Positions 10,285-25,058 of a stretch of 37,434 bases of DNA are shown one piece after another. Within the stretch, counting starts at the first letter, position 1; every line of letters starts with the position of its first letter. The DNA is from a virus, in the IMG/VR virus record IMGVR_UViG_3300035142_000018, positions 1 through 37,434 of that record. One strand, written 5' to 3'. The notes under the pieces were generated by a model. It did no database searches. It worked only from the letters and a program-made list of their open reading frames with translations, and was not told where the DNA came from. The position numbers and the translations under genes were made by a program.

Positions 10285-10530
10285 ATGGAGATAGCAACTA
10301 AAGTTATACGCCAAGTATATGACGATGGCGGTAAGTATTTGACTGTACAACCTTGGCCTGAGTCGCCTAGCGCAGTAGGCTTGATGTCAGTCGGAAAGGA
10401 AAATCAGGAATACTGGGGAGACAATGAAATTGTAATGTCACCTGAGTTTGCCCGTCAATTAGGAAAGGCTTTGATTGCTTGCGCTGATGAAATTGAGTGT
10501 AACTTTAAAAACTCACACAGCGGGAGATAG
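10285..10530 (+). CDS. 81-residue hypothetical protein
   Basis: MEIATKVIRQVYDDGGKYLT followed by strand-rich sequence and an SPEFARQLGKALIACADEI helix. It resembles small phage proteins that end in a helix of this type, but I cannot name a family. AAGGA precedes the ATG. Confidence 0.6.
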   Translation: MEIATKVIRQVYDDGGKYLTVQPWPESPSAVGLMSVGKENQEYWGDNEIVMSPEFARQLGKALIACADEIECNFKNSHSGR

Positions 10531-10532
10531 AA

Positions 10533-10556
10533 ATGGTTAAAAGATACGGTTGGTAA
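10533..10556 (+). CDS. seven-codon minigene (MVKRYGW)
   Basis: ATG 10533 follows GCGGGAGATAGAA and the frame stops after seven codons. It could be a leader peptide for the structured RNA downstream. A second seven-codon frame with a similar CGGGAGATA block precedes SSB. Translation is unproven. Confidence 0.3.
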   Translation: MVKRYGW

Positions 10557-10576
10557 AGGGTAGTTCCAAAGTGTTA

Positions 10577-10613
10577 GCCGGGGGATCGCTCTCCTGTGAA
10601 CCCGGCATTTTTT
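10577..10613 (+). terminator. intrinsic-terminator-like hairpin before the structured RNA
   Basis: GCCGGG (10577-10582) pairs with CCCGGC (10601-10606), followed by ATTTTTT. It could terminate the first rightward unit or be the 5' domain of the RNA that follows. Confidence 0.6.
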
Positions 10614-10985
10614 AGTAAGGGCGTTGCGGCGTGAAAGCTGAAGCTGTTGAAAGGGCTAGACCCTGTAGATAGTAGAGACACGCGGAAACCGTAGAGGCTA
10701 ACTGGTAGTGGTAGCTATGGGGGCAAGGCCACAACCGAGCAGGATTAGCGCCCTGCCAGCGTCCTTACTAAAGATTATTAGTGATAAGGGTGGAGAGCCT
10801 TGTACGAGCGGGCTTTCGTCTGGTCGGACCTTGCATCCGGCCAGCACCCTTATCAGTAAATCGCTTGCTCAGCGTAGAAAAATAGAGCCAGTGTAGGGCC
10901 GAGCTGAGGCAGGACACAATTTGAGGCGAATGAGTAATCCTAGGGGTACTCGCTAGCTGGACGAGCCATCGGCCTTATCAGTAAC
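10614..10985 (+). ncRNA. large structured noncoding RNA, family not recognised
   Basis: No plausible gene is found here; the open frames lack ribosome sites and codon structure. The RNA can form a 13-bp helix (10614-10626 with 10757-10769) enclosing GCGTG/CACGC, AGGG/CCCT, CGG-AAA-CCG and GCAGG/CCTGC hairpins; a 15-bp helix with one mismatch (10778-10792 with 10845-10859) enclosing GAGAGCC/GGCTTTC and CTGG-CGGA/TCCG-CCAG stems; and a third domain (GGCCGA 10897-10902 with TCGGCC 10969-10974) with a GAGTA/TACTC hairpin. I do not see group I, group II, RNase P or tmRNA signatures. It ends just before the ribosome site of the 10999 gene. Confidence 0.65.
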
Positions 10986-10998
10986 AAGAGGTAAATAA

Positions 10999-11196
10999 AT
11001 GGACCCATACACCAAATACCGCCAGGAATTAGACAAAGAGATAAAGGAAAGAATCATGACGAAGGATTATTCAAAAAGCATAAGACAGGAAACCGAGGAA
11101 CAGGAAGCCAGAAAAACAGAGCGCCGCATGACTTTGTTTGTCTCCCTGTTTGCCCTCTATGGATTGATTAATTATGTATTTAGCTTAAGGGGTTGA
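10999..11196 (+). CDS. 65-residue tail-anchored membrane protein
   Basis: ATG 10999 after AAGAGGTAAATAA. Highly charged helical N-terminal two thirds, then one hydrophobic helix (MTLFVSLFALYGLINYVFSL). Predicted cytoplasmic coil anchored in the inner membrane. Function unknown. Confidence 0.65.
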   Translation: MDPYTKYRQELDKEIKERIMTKDYSKSIRQETEEQEARKTERRMTLFVSLFALYGLINYVFSLRG

Positions 11197-11197
11197 T

Positions 11198-11401
11198 ATG
11201 TTCAATTACAAACCTACCACTTGCGTCAGGAACATCGAAGAACACTTTGATTGCCAGGCAGGATATGAGCCTGAGAGGTACGCCGCAGACGCACGAGAAG
11301 CACTAACCAATGTATTGAGGTATTCACACTACCTGGAATTATCTGGTAGTGATAAAGAGCAATTCGCCGCAATGATTATCAGACTACAGGAGTTGACATG
11401 A
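11198..11401 (+). CDS. 67-residue hypothetical protein
   Basis: Starts MFNYKPTTCVRNIEEHFDCQ, with two cysteines, then helical. AAGGGG precedes the ATG. Coupled to the next gene by ATGA. Confidence 0.6.
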   Translation: MFNYKPTTCVRNIEEHFDCQAGYEPERYAADAREALTNVLRYSHYLELSGSDKEQFAAMIIRLQELT

Positions 11402-11916
11402 AGGTCGGCGTTGAATCATGGATTGCTAAGAATTTTCCAGGCAGGGTATTTCAAATAATACCCACCGCCTGCCGGTACGCGGTAAGCGATAAGGGCGATG
11501 TTATTTCTTTTTTTGGCGAAAGGCCGCGAGCGCTAAAGCCGTCAGTTTCCGGCTTCGGTTACAAGGCGTTTAAGTTAGTTGATAACTATGGGAATAGGAA
11601 AACTACATATGTGCATACAGTTGTAGCTGAAAACTTCCTTGGCCCAAGGCCTGATAATAATGTCATACGTCATTTAGACGGTGATTGCACAAACAACCGC
11701 ATAGACAACCTTGCGTATGGGACGCAGAAGGATAATGAGGCGGATAAAAGTATTTACGGAGTCAGGAAAGCGACAAACGCAAAATTAACCGCTTCTCAAG
11801 TTAACTCTATAAGAGAGAGGCATTCATTTGGCGCGAAGCAAAAAAGTCTTGCTGATGAATTTTCTGTATCCCCAATGTGTATAAATCGTATTGTAAGAGG
11901 AGTTTCGTGGAAATGA
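11398..11916 (+). CDS. HNH homing-type endonuclease
   Basis: 172 residues. An N-terminal NUMOD4-like region (YAVSDKGDVISFFGERPRALKPSVSGFGYKAFKL) leads to an HNH_3 core HTVVAENF-PDNNVIRHLDGD-CTNNRIDNLAYGT. A C-terminal helix-turn-helix (KSLADEFSVSPMCINRIV) probably reads DNA. Such enzymes nick or cut at a specific site and spread by homing. It is free-standing, wedged by ATGA overlaps into the early operon just before the ERF gene. Confidence 0.88.
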   Translation: MKVGVESWIAKNFPGRVFQIIPTACRYAVSDKGDVISFFGERPRALKPSVSGFGYKAFKLVDNYGNRKTTYVHTVVAENFLGPRPDNNVIRHLDGDCTNNRIDNLAYGTQKDNEADKSIYGVRKATNAKLTASQVNSIRERHSFGAKQKSLADEFSVSPMCINRIVRGVSWK

Positions 11917-12515
11917 ATATGTCTGAGTCTATCAAAGAGCTATCTTCTGCCTTAGCTAAGGCGCAAGCGGAAATGGCAAACCCAAAAAAGAATTCAAGCA
12001 ATCCATTCTTCAAATCTAAATATGCTGACCTGTCCGAAGTTATCAATGTGTCTAAGCCTGTTTTGGCAAGTCATGGACTATCTATTCTTCAGTTACCTGG
12101 TTATCAAGATGGTTTGGTTTCTGTTGAAACAGTCATTACCCATGAATCAGGAGAATACATTTCTAGCATTATGTCTTTACCGCCAGTAAAAGGTGACCCG
12201 CAGGCGGTTGGGTCTGCTGTTACTTATGCCCGTCGATATGCGCTTGCCGCAATTTGCGGTATAGCTCAAGAAGACGATGACGGTAATGAAGCGGTTAAAC
12301 AGGTTGCTCCGAAGAAACGGGTGAATAAAAAGCAGGTCCAGGGCTATGTTGCAGACTTTATCGTAGCTATTGAAAACGAGGACGCACTAGCAATCCGTCA
12401 AATGGGCGAGGAACTTACTGACACCCCAGAGCATGACGCAGTATGGCAGGCACTTGATTCTGAGCAGAAGACCAAAGTAAAAGCGATATTGCAGACGCTT
12501 AGGGAAACTGGATAA
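11913..12515 (+). CDS. erf: ERF-family single-strand annealing protein
   Basis: 200 residues from ATG 11913 (ATGA overlap with the HNH gene). NPFFKSKYADLSEVINVSKP, then a VETVITHESGEYI block, DPQAVGSAVTYARRYALAAI and EDDDGNEA are the ERF hallmarks. The protein binds single-stranded DNA and anneals complementary strands in phage recombination or circularisation. SSB lies shortly downstream. The C-terminal helical part is variable in this family. The stop TAA begins attC-like element D. Confidence 0.93.
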   Translation: MNMSESIKELSSALAKAQAEMANPKKNSSNPFFKSKYADLSEVINVSKPVLASHGLSILQLPGYQDGLVSVETVITHESGEYISSIMSLPPVKGDPQAVGSAVTYARRYALAAICGIAQEDDDGNEAVKQVAPKKRVNKKQVQGYVADFIVAIENEDALAIRQMGEELTDTPEHDAVWQALDSEQKTKVKAILQTLRETG

Positions 12516-12885: not shown

Positions 12886-12909
12886 ATGAATCGCGGGAGA
12901 TATATCTAA
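12886..12909 (+). CDS. seven-codon leader minigene (MNRGRYI) before SSB
   Basis: ATG 12886 is preceded by a strong AGGAGAAAGAA site; the stop TAA overlaps the SSB start as TAATG. Coupled reinitiation onto ssb is plausible, because SSB itself has only a GGGAG site inside the minigene. Unproven. Confidence 0.4.
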
Positions 12910-13361
12910 TGGCACAACGTGGAGTTAATCGTGTAATCATCATTGGCAACATGGGCCAAGACCCTGAAGTTAAATACATGCAAAACGGTAACGCGGTAGC
13001 CAATATCACAGTAGCTACGAGTGAAGCCTGGAAAGATAAGAACACTGGGGAGAATCAGGAAAAGACGGAATGGCACAGGGTTGTCGCTTTCCGAAAGCTG
13101 GCGGAAATCATAGGCGAGTATTTAAAGAAAGGCTCAAAGGTTTACATTGAAGGCAAGCTGCAAACGCGCAAATGGCAAGACCAGAACGGCAATGATAGAT
13201 ACACAACAGAGATTATTGCAGATCAGATGCAGATGCTTGATGGACGAGGCGGGGCGTCAACGAGTAGCGATACCGCTACCCATCAAGGGGCTGACGGCAG
13301 CCAGTCCTCCCCGCAAGCTGCCCCAAACAATGAAGGCTTTGACGACGACATTCCGTTCTGA
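12909..13361 (+). CDS. ssb: single-stranded DNA-binding protein
   Basis: 150 residues. The OB-fold occupies about 1-110: [59 protein letters not shown] flexible S/Q/A/P-rich linker leads to the acidic tip FDDDIPF, the usual docking peptide for replication and repair partners. It coats single-stranded DNA and works with ERF and the primase-helicase. Confidence 0.97.
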
Positions 13362-13766: not shown

Positions 13767-13948
13767 CACACATAACAGAAACAGTCTGCGCGACTATCTC
13801 TGATTTAGCCTCAGACCTTGCCCATGATCTTAATATAGAGCCTGAGCTGATCCGCGAAGCGTTTGAATATGGCAGGGCGAGAAAACGCAGGGTTATGTTA
13901 ATGGACGTTACCACCAGGGCAGAAGGGCCGGAGGAGGTAGAGGAATGA
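13763..13948 (+). CDS. 61-residue hypothetical protein
   Basis: MTHITETVCATISDLASDLAHDLN, an acidic helical N-terminus, then a basic RARKRRV segment and a glutamate-rich end. Coupled on both sides by ATGA. Function unknown. Confidence 0.6.
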   Translation: MTHITETVCATISDLASDLAHDLNIEPELIREAFEYGRARKRRVMLMDVTTRAEGPEEVEE

Positions 13949-14016
13949 CCACCCTATTTATACTATCAATAGTAACCCTTGCCTGGTTGCAGAGTGGAGA
14001 ATGGGCGAGGTTTTAA
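13945..14016 (+). CDS. 23-residue membrane peptide
   Basis: ATG 13945 overlaps the upstream stop as ATGA; GGAGGTAGAGGA lies just upstream. Hydrophobic core TLFILSIVTLAWL, so a single membrane helix is likely. The stop lies in the R'' box of attC-like element E. Confidence 0.5.
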   Translation: MTTLFILSIVTLAWLQSGEWARF

Positions 14017-14072
14017 CGCCTAAATAAGCTGGCCGAGCGAAGCGAGGGTCAGCCTTGATTTTCTTGTTAGCG
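14011..14072 (+). repeat. attC-like element E
   Basis: R'' TTTTAAC, left arm TAAGCTGGCC, GAGCGAAGCGAG centre, right arm GGTCAGCCTTGA with extra unpaired bases, R' GTTAGCG. The R' box also supplies the GCGAGG ribosome site of the next gene. Confidence 0.6.
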
Positions 14073-14079
14073 AGGACTT

Positions 14080-22189: not shown

Positions 22190-22191
22190 AG

Positions 22192-22297
22192 TTTCCGTCA
22201 GAAAGTTATTTTTCTGTCAGCCGGTCTGACAGACGCAAGTTGTTGTTTTGTAAGCTATTTATTTTTTTCTGTCAGAAAGCACATTTTTTCTGTCAGA
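22192..22297 (-). repeat. cluster of CTGTCAG/CTGACAG repeats before the DUF115 gene
   Basis: Five copies of a C-T/C-G-T-C-A-G core, most followed or preceded by runs of T or A: at 22195, 22214, 22225 (inverted, GTCTGACAGAC), 22269 and 22290. TTTCTGTCAGAAA is a perfect palindrome. Two further palindromes (22300-22311, 22320-22343) follow. Likely operator or RNA structure; no protein is known to bind. Confidence 0.55.
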
Positions 22298-22351
22298 TGT
22301 TCCTATAGGAATGGGGCTCATTCCGTTAGTGACTTAACGGAATTAGAACCT

Positions 22352-22597
22352 TTAGTGTTTGGACGAAAGAACCCAATCTGCAAAATTCTCTGCACTATCG
22401 ATTGAGTCTGGCATAACGACGCCTTCTTCAGCCAATGCGGATTTTGCGCTATCTATCACCAACTTTTCCATCTTGTATTTCTGAAATGCGCTATCTACAT
22501 CAATCCCACTGCTTGACTGTCTCAAACTGCAATTACACTGCTCGCCGCAATAAACAAAGCATTTTTTATATTTATTGAAATCAGAAAACAACGGCAT
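22352..22597 (-). CDS. 81-residue cysteine-containing hypothetical protein
   Basis: FVYCGEQCNCSLRQ has three closely spaced cysteines; the rest is helical and acidic. AAAGGTGAAAG precedes the ATG. It stands between two repeat-bearing noncoding stretches in the late operon, so it may be an inserted accessory gene. Function unknown. Confidence 0.5.
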   Translation of the reverse strand: MPLFSDFNKYKKCFVYCGEQCNCSLRQSSSGIDVDSAFQKYKMEKLVIDSAKSALAEEGVVMPDSIDSAENFADWVLSSKH

Positions 22598-22771: not shown

Positions 22772-23239
22772 TTAGAACGTGGTTGAACGTGGGAATGAGG
22801 CGATAACCTCTGTTTCCCCTGCTGTAGCCACAGCCGCAACCGCTACCACACCGTCGATATTGGTCTGTGAGGTGCTGGTATCATCCAGCACACCCGCAGT
22901 CGCCGTGGTGTAAAGTGCAACGTCAGCAGCACATGAAGCAGCCACACGAACACTGATATTGGAACCGCGAGTGGCAACCCACCCATAGTCATTATCAGTG
23001 AATGCGACCTGTGCGAAACCGATTTGATGACCATCGTCAGCGATAGCTTTCGTCAAAGCCGCCGCCTGATAGTTCTCATCGATTCCCACAGCGTCATACT
23101 GTGTGATAGCTCCACTGGCCTGTACATAAACCCATTCAGTGCCGTCTGAACCGAGTACACGAGTACCCAGATCAAAACCGGCAGTAGTGGGTGTAGCAGT
23201 GAAATCAACCCCAACGCATCCAGAAGTAGCAAAAGTCAT
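22772..23239 (-). CDS. capsid decoration/stabilisation-like protein
   Basis: 155 residues, A/T/G-rich and beta-predicted: LGTRVLGSDGTEWVYVQASG and VAAVATAGETEVIASFPRS. Small beta-rich proteins directly after the major capsid gene are usually head decoration or head-fibre bases. Terminated by the strong hairpin at 22743-22765. Confidence 0.65.
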   Translation of the reverse strand: MTFATSGCVGVDFTATPTTAGFDLGTRVLGSDGTEWVYVQASGAITQYDAVGIDENYQAAALTKAIADDGHQIGFAQVAFTDNDYGWVATRGSNISVRVAASCAADVALYTTATAGVLDDTSTSQTNIDGVVAVAAVATAGETEVIASFPRSTTF

Positions 23240-23249
23240 AATAACCCCC

Positions 23250-23992
23250 TTAGCTGGCGATGATAACGCCCTGAAGTGAACGGTTAGAACAGGTCATATT
23301 ACCCGCCCAAACTACCGGAATCACCATAGCGTCTTGGTTAATGGAATTGCGCTCATCCAATGGTACGAACTGACGCGAGGAATGTGGCCGCAGATACATA
23401 TAGTCTGTATTCACAAAATACATATGACTGGCAGGACATTGATCATCATAGAACACATCCGCAGTTTTGTATTTTAGTGATTCGAAACCCTGCTCCGCTT
23501 CTGACGCACTTGAGAACCTTTGGTACTGCTGGAGTGATTCTTCAAAATGCGTGTACATAACCGCATCAGCAGCAATAAAGTCAGGTTTGTCAGTACCACG
23601 AATAGTTGACAGCCACATGGTATTCATTCGAGCGCCAATAGTACCCGCTGAGGTCGCAGCAGCAGCAGAATACTGGTTTTGCCAGAAATCGTAAGTGGAC
23701 TGATTAATACCACCAACAGTCGCAGAAGCGGTAGGATCGTCAGCAATCAACAATTGCAAACCGCCCAGGCTTTTCGTGTCGGTAGTACCATCAGCATAAA
23801 CAGCAGTCGCAGCCGAGTTCTGGAGGGTTTTTTCCAGGTTCTTGATGCGCTTATCCAGAAGATTGATGATTCTGGATTTACCAGAGTTCTTGATTTCTTC
23901 CAGGCCGGAAATTGTGACTGTACCGGCAAGCTGTTTCCAATCGTAAGTAGCAGCGTCAAATACTTCCTGTGGGGTAGTATCGAGTACTTCAT
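23250..23992 (-). CDS. major capsid protein, exon 2
   Basis: Second exon of the split capsid gene, about 247 residues. EVLDTTPQEVFDAATYDWKQ, EEIKNSGKSRIINLLDKRIK and LGGLQLLIADDPTASATVGG are typical of a podovirus capsid family. Joined to exon 1 (24857-25058) the coding length is 945 bases, 314 residues, in frame, and the junction reads YSG-YEVLDTTPQ. A stop occurs a few codons upstream in the intron, so splicing is needed. Confidence 0.88.
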
Positions 23993-24856
23993 CAGTTATG
24001 TTATCGCGGCTTTTTTAATTACCGCTTCTGCATGTCGCCATACAGCTCAGACTATATCATCCCTTTCGGGCAGGGCGCTCGTGGGAGGATTACCGGCATT
24101 GCTTTCGCGTTAGCCTCGCCTCCTAGTCGTTGCACCGTCTAAAACGTTTCCGCTTTAGCTTGGCTCAGGATTGACTTCATAACCTCGATTTAGTATTATG
24201 AAGTTGTTCCCTGAATTCACCCCGTTTTACCACCTATACATAATGGCTCGAGCAAAACCACAACCTAGACAAACTTTTTACTGTGAAGTGTGCGGTAAAG
24301 GCTTTCTTCGCAATCAGGCGCAGATTAAAAAAAGCACCCCTCGCTGGTGTTCTCGTGACTGTCAATCCAAAGGAATGTCTGGAAAAAACAATCCGTTTTG
24401 GAATAAATCACACTCCGAAAAGACCAGGAAGAAAATCTCCGACTCTCGTAAAGGCAAACAAATTGGTAATCAACATGCCAAAGGCTATGCACATTCAGAA
24501 GAGGCTAAAAAGAAAATCTCTGAAGCATCTAAAGAAATGTGGAAAAAAAACCGGGACAAAATGATTGCCAGCTTACCTCGTGGAGAGGACCACATATTTC
24601 ACAAACCACCAGAAGAACGGCGGTATCGTAAAGAATTTACACCATATCAAAGACGTGAATGGAAAGATGATCATTGCGCCTATTGCGGCACCACGAAAAA
24701 TCTAGTGTTAGATCACATAATTCCTGTATTTGATGGTGGGACGAATATTAAAGAGAACGCCCAAACTCTTTGCCAAGGTTGTAATATATGGAAAGTCTAT
24801 TTAATCGACCTTCCACGCCGTAATGCCAAATTAGCTATAGATGGGGGCCAAAGTTA
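23993..24856 (-). other. group I intron in the major capsid gene
   Basis: 864 bases on the capsid-coding strand. Conserved core elements are visible: P (TGAATTCAGGGAAC, 24206-24219), Q (AATCCTGAGCCAAGC, 24158-24172), R (GGTGCAACGACTAGGA, 24121-24136) and S (GATATAGTCTGAG, 24046-24058). P4 pairs TCAGG with CCTGA and P7 pairs GACTA with TAGTC. Exon 1 ends in T, the intron ends in G, and P1 can form as exon GGGT with intron GCCC (U-G at the splice site). Splicing restores the capsid frame. Confidence 0.9.
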
Positions 24857-24857
24857 A
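24243..24857 (+). CDS. HNH homing endonuclease, antisense within the group I intron
   Basis: 204 residues from ATG 24243; an upstream in-frame ATG at 24198 would run through the intron P element. N-terminal zinc knuckles (FYCEVCGKGF, RWCSRDCQ), two NUMOD3 DNA-binding repeats (HSEKTRKKISDSRKGK, HSEEAKKKISEASKEM) and an HNH core (CAYCGTTKN, LDHIIPVFDGGTN, NAQTLCQGCN). It points opposite to the capsid gene, and its stop codon reaches one base into exon 1. No good ribosome site or promoter is seen. Confidence 0.88.
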   Translation: MARAKPQPRQTFYCEVCGKGFLRNQAQIKKSTPRWCSRDCQSKGMSGKNNPFWNKSHSEKTRKKISDSRKGKQIGNQHAKGYAHSEEAKKKISEASKEMWKKNRDKMIASLPRGEDHIFHKPPEERRYRKEFTPYQRREWKDDHCAYCGTTKNLVLDHIIPVFDGGTNIKENAQTLCQGCNIWKVYLIDLPRRNAKLAIDGGQS

Positions 24858-25058
24858 CCCTGAGTACCATCCCGCAGTGCCGTTTTCTGCATATTCGAGT
24901 TCTTCGACGATTTCGCGACCACCATCGGCAGGAGACACATTACCTTTTCTGTTCAAACGAGAAAAAAGGGCATTGTGATTCAATACGTTGTCGGACAGTT
25001 TACCTCTCCGATTTCGCAGCGTAGTGGCAACGATTTCGCCAATATTAATAGTAGCCAT
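24857..25058 (-). CDS. major capsid protein, exon 1
   Basis: First exon, 67 codons plus one base: MATINIGEIVATTLRNRRGK to EIVEELEYAENGTAGWYSG. GGAGTCCTTATG-like leader upstream. The D-G-G-R-E-I-V-E-E-L-E-Y block is conserved in this capsid family. Without splicing the frame runs into the intron and stops after seven more residues. Confidence 0.88.

What the first reader, a model, noticed from the sequence alone, without database searches (positions are those of the whole stretch)
10577..10985. Large structured RNA of unknown family in the early operon
About 370-410 bases with no credible gene carry three nested domains with long helices (13 bp with two G-U pairs, 15 bp with one mismatch, plus at least six local hairpins) and a terminator-like hairpin at the 5' side. 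Phages are known to carry large ornate RNAs (GOLLD, ROOL types); I cannot match this one to any by eye.
Basis: partly seen in the sequence, partly recalled or inferred. Interest (0 to 1): 0.82.

Follow-up and report, generated by a model that had tools for sequence, protein, structure and literature searches.

The report
Orphan structured RNA segment in phage
A phage early operon contains about 415 bases of non-coding sequence that begins with a terminator-like hairpin and folds, in its first two thirds, into much stronger RNA helices than chance gives; it matches no known RNA family and no relative could be found, so it is a good candidate RNA element but not a proven new RNA class.

Summary
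Partly confirmed. The stretch 10572-10986 is non-coding: no frame shows the phage's codon usage and all six carry stops. On the + strand it folds better than 150 of 150 shuffles (z -3.7); the - strand does not (z -0.9). The signal sits in two domains: 10776-10861 (z -6.6) and 10609-10774 (z -3.4, mostly its 18-bp closing helix). The third domain, 10862-10990, is at chance (z 0.0). The 5' hairpin plus T6 (10577-10612) is real and is the only + strand intrinsic-terminator-like site of its kind in the window. Rfam gives nothing even at E 10. No homologue was found in phages, plasmids, E. coli, IMG/VR patterns, about 50 whole viral records or several hundred genomes, so covariation is untestable. 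The phage is an orphan, P22-like podovirus; its nearest relative is a 9.6-kb fragment lacking this region. GOLLD/ROOL membership is not supported. Best reading: a terminator plus structured internal leader ending just before the next gene's Shine-Dalgarno, dividing the early operon and capping its downstream mRNA; a separately accumulating RNA is the main rival. In passing: a group I intron splits the major capsid gene.

The parts
10577..10606 (+). 5' hairpin GCCGGG...CCCGGC with inner TCGC/GTGA stem; with the following A-T6 an intrinsic-terminator-like site
   Evidence: MFE -17.4 kcal/mol; pair probability 0.98; only + strand site of its type in the window
10607..10612 (+). T-tract after the hairpin; part of it is also the 5' end of the domain 1 closing helix
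   Evidence: sequence; pairs 10609-10612 with 10771-10774 in the fold
10609..10774 (+). domain 1: 18-bp closing helix with 3 G-U pairs enclosing several weaker hairpins
   Evidence: z -3.43, 1 of 500 shuffles; inner part alone z -0.97; closing helix mean pair probability 0.96
10776..10861 (+). domain 2: three-way junction, closing helix TTAGTGATAAGGGTG/CACCCTTATCAGTAA with two hairpin arms (10793-10817 and 10820-10844)
   Evidence: z -6.58, 0 of 500 shuffles; the - strand of the same stretch also z -4.43
10862..10986 (+). domain 3: weakly predicted hairpin (10862-10893) and a helix TAGGGCCGA/TCGGCCTTA (10894-10902/10969-10977); not more structured than chance
   Evidence: z -0.03, 232 of 500 shuffles as good
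10840..10859 (+). direct repeat copy 1, GCCAGCACCCTTATCAGTAA (3' arm of domain 2)
   Evidence: 85% identical to copy 2 over 20 nt; unit 2 against unit 3, P about 0.001 by shuffles
10965..10984 (+). direct repeat copy 2, GCCATCGGCCTTATCAGTAA (3' arm of domain 3)
10285..10530 (+). upstream gene, 81 aa, unknown function; weak relative in Acidovorax phage ACP17
   Evidence: ORF; tblastn 43% over 64 aa, E 7e-8
10999..11196 (+). downstream gene, 65 aa, unknown function, preceded by an AGAGG Shine-Dalgarno-like site at 10987-10992
   Evidence: ORF, sequence; no relatives

Best explanation
A cis-acting RNA segment of the early transcript. Transcription coming from upstream meets an intrinsic terminator (10577-10612) after the 81-aa gene. 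Polymerase that reads through makes a roughly 375-nt structured segment with two robust domains that ends directly before the Shine-Dalgarno of the next gene. The likely role is to split the early operon into a high-expression front part and a reduced back part (two small genes, HNH endonuclease, ERF annealing protein, SSB), with the stable helices forming the protected 5' end or insulator of the downstream mRNA. Shown: the sequence and position, the absence of coding signal, and predicted folding beyond chance for domains 1 and 2 and for the + strand. Inferred: that it is transcribed, that the terminator works, and the effect on downstream mRNA.
For: Terminator-like hairpin with T6, unique of its kind on the + strand of the window. 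No + strand promoter-like site inside or just before the segment. Non-coding. + strand fold z -3.7 against -0.9 on the - strand; domain 2 z -6.6, domain 1 z -3.4, 18 G-U pairs among 139. Flanked on both sides by genes on the same strand, with the last predicted pair 10986 adjoining the Shine-Dalgarno-like AGAGG of the gene at 10999. Helices of domains 1 and 2 form locally in growing transcripts, and the swapped pairings tried cost 10-30 kcal/mol, so it looks like a fixed scaffold rather than a switch.
Against: No homologue, hence no covariation. No expression data. The terminator lies before, not after, the structured domains, so the domains cannot regulate that terminator by simple attenuation. 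Coding stretches of the same phage also show low z-scores. Domain 3, the part next to the downstream gene, is at chance level.
Confidence: 0.4

Rival explanations
1. A free, trans-acting phage non-coding RNA of about 375-415 nt, released from the early transcript by processing, which accumulates and acts on host or phage components, functionally like other large phage RNAs.
For: Size, multi-domain fold, closure of the whole element by a 5-bp helix 10572-10576/10982-10986 (probability 0.86), no coding, no Rfam match.
Against: No own promoter or 3' terminator found; one third of it is at chance level for structure; no second copy in any collection searched, whereas GOLLD and ROOL recur in many phages.
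Confidence: 0.3
2. A DNA-level element: nested inverted repeats used as a replication, recombination or protein-binding site, or the remnant of a small palindromic mobile element; the RNA fold is a by-product.
For: Domain 2 is strongly self-complementary on both strands (z -6.6 and -4.4); related inverted-repeat arms and a 20-nt direct repeat.
Against: Domain 1 and the whole element are special only on the + strand (-3.4 against -1.3; -3.7 against -0.9), as expected if G-U pairs are used; no other copies in the window or elsewhere.
Confidence: 0.13
3. A decayed, formerly coding or randomly structured stretch without function.
For: No homologues; domain 3 and the inner part of domain 1 are at chance level; coding windows elsewhere reach similar or lower z-scores.
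Against: Domain 2: 0 of 500 shuffles, z -6.6; an 18-bp helix over 130 nt; no frame retains coding signal or protein-family similarity; of the gaps in the window, the two others tested have no structure signal.
Confidence: 0.12
4. An RNA that modifies RNA polymerase in cis so that it reads through later terminators (works like the put RNAs of phage HK022, known to me from general knowledge).
For: Early-operon position and stable local hairpins on the nascent RNA.
Against: It lies after, not before, the only + strand terminator of its type in the window; no sequence relation was tested against put because none could be retrieved.
Confidence: 0.05

Closest known systems
ROOL RNA (Rumen-Originating, Ornate, Large)
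   Same: Large structured RNA of phages and prophages with unknown function (PMC12286853).
   Different: No Rfam match; no tRNA in the window, whereas ROOL is often near tRNA islands; shorter; one third of the structure not supported.
[quoted passage not shown]
   Same: Phage- or prophage-encoded large RNA with several domains (PMC12286853).
   Different: Many GOLLD exceed 800 nt and have a conserved 3' part (PMC12286853); here about 415 nt, with the 3' part the least structured; no Rfam match.
Structured internal leaders and intergenic terminators of phage early operons (for example the P22/lambda kind of early regulation)
   Same: Position between same-strand early genes, intrinsic terminator, structure next to a ribosome-binding site.
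   Different: Unusually long (about 415 nt) and with the terminator upstream of the structured part; no nut/boxA-type site was tested.
Group I intron (RF00028)
   Same: Structured phage RNA; the same phage carries one at 24028-24269 (-).
   Different: The finding region does not match the group I model and splits no gene.

Membership tests
ROOL / GOLLD | match to the family covariance model in Rfam 15 | tested here: not met
   no match at gathering score over the window and none up to E 10 on 10400-11100
ROOL / GOLLD | location near phage tRNA genes (frequent, not universal) | tested here: not met
   no tRNA or tmRNA in the 37-kb window
ROOL / GOLLD | self-assembly into RNA cages | not testable with these tools
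   needs cryo-EM or native gels
Any known Rfam RNA class, including group I/II introns, riboswitches and self-cleaving ribozymes | covariance-model match | tested here: not met
Conserved structured non-coding RNA (general) | compensatory base changes in homologues | not testable with these tools
   no homologue found
Conserved structured non-coding RNA (general) | more stable fold than shuffled sequence on one strand | tested here: met
   + z -3.7, - z -0.9; domain 2 z -6.6, domain 1 z -3.4, domain 3 z 0.0
Protein-coding gene | open frame with the genome's codon usage or a family match | tested here: not met
Intrinsic terminator (5' hairpin) | G+C-rich hairpin followed directly by a T-run | tested here: met
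   function not tested
Terminator/antiterminator riboswitch-like leader | mutually exclusive pairings of similar stability | tested here: not met
   the two swapped pairings tried cost 10 and 30 kcal/mol; helices of the terminator and domain 1 do not compete; only these alternatives were examined

The most novel reading that the evidence does not exclude
A new class of large multi-domain phage RNA, about 415 nt, made early in infection by an unstudied lineage of P22-like podoviruses, with a function in trans.
Probability: 0.2. Interest if true: 0.65.

Novelty: new member of a known kind. Interest (0 to 1): 0.36.

Why it matters
If relatives turn up, this would be a further class of structured RNA in phage early regions, where few such RNAs are known, and the terminator-plus-leader arrangement would show how an orphan podovirus divides its early operon without an evident antiterminator. 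As it stands it is a single-sequence candidate.

Tried and rejected
Three tandem copies of one module: only the 3' ends of units 2 and 3 are alike (20 nt, P about 0.001, post hoc); unit 1 is not significantly similar to either, and the domain 2 model finds no second unit. Pairing switch between arms: swapped pairings are 10-30 kcal/mol worse. Group I/II intron, riboswitch, ribozyme: no Rfam hit at E 10 and no split gene. Pseudoknot CTCAGC/GCTGAG with GGCCGA/TCGGCC in domain 3: noticed by eye, not tested. Apparent matches checked and dismissed as chance: L058, L071, L082 and L083, Rheinheimera Barba phages (inside annotated genes), the Salmonella plasmid (inside a gene), 51 genome loci found by a 17-mer (no extended similarity), L266 (in an open frame that reads like an acyl carrier protein). 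The synteny route (ERF, portal, TerL and flanking small proteins) gave no relative carrying the region. Long gaps in ERF phages: L002 has a non-coding gap upstream of ERF with its own structured stretch, but no sequence similarity to the finding. Structured stretch at 22.7-23.2 kb (-): coding (virion structural protein).

Full report
What was claimed.

Setting. The window is a 37,434-base virus record. TerL, portal, an ejection protein and a major head protein mark a P22-like podovirus. The + strand run from about 9.6 kb carries small unknown genes, an HNH endonuclease (11398-11916), an ERF annealing protein (11877-12515) and an SSB (12909-13361); 'early operon' is an inference from these genes. 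The nearest named phage by TerL is Pseudanabaena phage Pam1, 62.5%. The portal has only 25-33% relatives in the phage collection. The closest IMG/VR relative, L178, shares TerL at about 83% and portal at 68% but is a 9.6-kb fragment without the early region. The phage is thus an orphan in the sets searched.

Coding potential. All six frames are broken by 4-14 stops and score -0.17 to +0.08 bits per codon, against 0.10-0.37 for 32 genes of the window scored leave-one-out. Neither the 62-aa ORF at 10708-10896 nor the six translated frames match PHROGs. The region is non-coding.

Folding. For 10560-10995 the + strand MFE is -168.3 kcal/mol, z -3.76, 0 of 100 shuffles; the - strand z is -0.42. By parts: domain 1, 10607-10772, z -3.43 (1 of 500) on +, -1.27 on -, but its interior alone only -0.97, so the closing helix carries the signal. 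Domain 2, 10776-10861, z -6.58 (0 of 500) on + and -4.43 on -. Domain 3, 10862-10990, z -0.03. Thus two of the three claimed domains exceed chance. Eighteen of 139 predicted pairs are G-U. Caution: a scan of the whole window with 200-nt windows puts coding stretches at 22.7-23.2 kb (-) at z down to -6.66, and the finding at -3.5 to -3.8, so a low z in this genome is not by itself proof of an RNA gene.

The hairpin. 10577-10606 (GCCGGG...CCCGGC, -17.4 kcal/mol) followed by ATTTTTT is the only + strand site in the window with a perfect stem of at least 6 bp, at least 5 of them G-C, a loop of up to 30 bases and a T5 run; the only - strand one follows the structural gene at 22775. The tool's own scan missed it because its loop limit is 8. 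It lies between the 81-aa gene and the structured domains. Its T-tract is shared with the first bases of the domain 1 helix, but its stem does not compete with that helix.

Limits and arrangement. A 5-bp helix 10572-10576/10982-10986 closes the whole (pair probability 0.86); such a short helix is weak evidence. The Shine-Dalgarno-like AGAGG of the gene at 10999 follows at once. A 20-nt direct repeat (10840-10859, 10965-10984; 85%) provides the 3' arms of domains 2 and 3. Unit 2 and unit 3 are alike there beyond shuffles (P about 0.001, noticed first and tested afterwards), unit 1 is not.

Known families. Rfam 15 gives no match at gathering score and none up to E 10 on both strands of 10400-11100. 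No tRNA is present.

Search for relatives. blastn, word 11: phages, plasmids, 5,426 E. coli genomes. Exact patterns: IMG/VR (18, 45) and 84,980 species genomes. 49 whole virus records reached through ERF or TerL relatives. 398 proteobacterial genomes by DNA (70). Single-sequence covariance models of domain 2 (R1) and domain 1 (R2) over 83 loci, 1.2 Mb, and over 369 and 398 genomes. Everything found was short, and those inspected lay in coding sequence. The negative is limited: exact patterns and single-sequence models miss diverged RNAs, the relatives of this phage are not in the sets, and metagenome contigs could not be scanned. Covariation therefore could not be tested.

Mechanism. The anatomy (same-strand neighbours, no own promoter-like site, terminator first, structured part next, ribosome-binding site last) is best read as an internal terminator plus a structured leader of the downstream part of the early transcript (0.40). 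A free trans-acting RNA is the main rival (0.30). A DNA inverted-repeat element (0.13), a non-functional stretch (0.12) and an antitermination RNA (0.05) follow. Transcription itself is not shown.

Comparison. GOLLD and ROOL are defined by their covariance models and are often near tRNA islands, GOLLD often over 800 nt (PMC12286853). The tested features are not met, so it is not filed there. Whether it works like them cannot be told.

Noticed in passing
window 23991-24855 (-), intron core 24028-24269 (-): A group I intron (RF00028, 63 bits) splits the major head protein gene: the upstream part (24834-25058) matches phrog_9953 positions 4-71 and the downstream part (23253-23990) positions 72-328. 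An HNH/NUMOD3 endonuclease ORF (24198-24857) lies inside the intron on the opposite strand and overlaps the start of the matched core.
   Followed up: partly
window 22190-22320: Several copies, in both orientations, of a short motif CTGACAGAAA between genes at 22352 and 22189; strong folding signal on the - strand (z -4.7). Possibly an operator or replication-type site.
   Followed up: no
window 22775-23239 (-): Strongest folding z-score of the window (to -6.66), within a coding virion structural gene (phrog_29386).
   Followed up: partly
L072 3574-3700 (-): Match to the Betaproteobacteria-1 RNA (RF02932, 85.5 bits) in a phage contig, about 1.3 kb from an ERF gene.
   Followed up: no
L002 3863-4418 (+): In the contig with the closest ERF (58%), a non-coding 556-nt gap upstream of ERF holds a promoter-like site, a short structured stretch with terminator, and a long inverted repeat (TTCATAAGACTG/CAGTCTTATGAA); unrelated in sequence to the finding.
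   Followed up: partly
L047 6556-7129, L011 3184-3774, L043 3240-3751, L074 3548-4029: Shared non-coding gaps (82-90% identical in parts) near ERF genes in freshwater phage contigs, with repeated GTAAAGTT and CCCGTTCGGGAA motifs.
   Followed up: no
window 13767-14079 (+): A second non-coding gap (313 nt) in the same gene run, without folding signal (z -0.7).
   Followed up: partly
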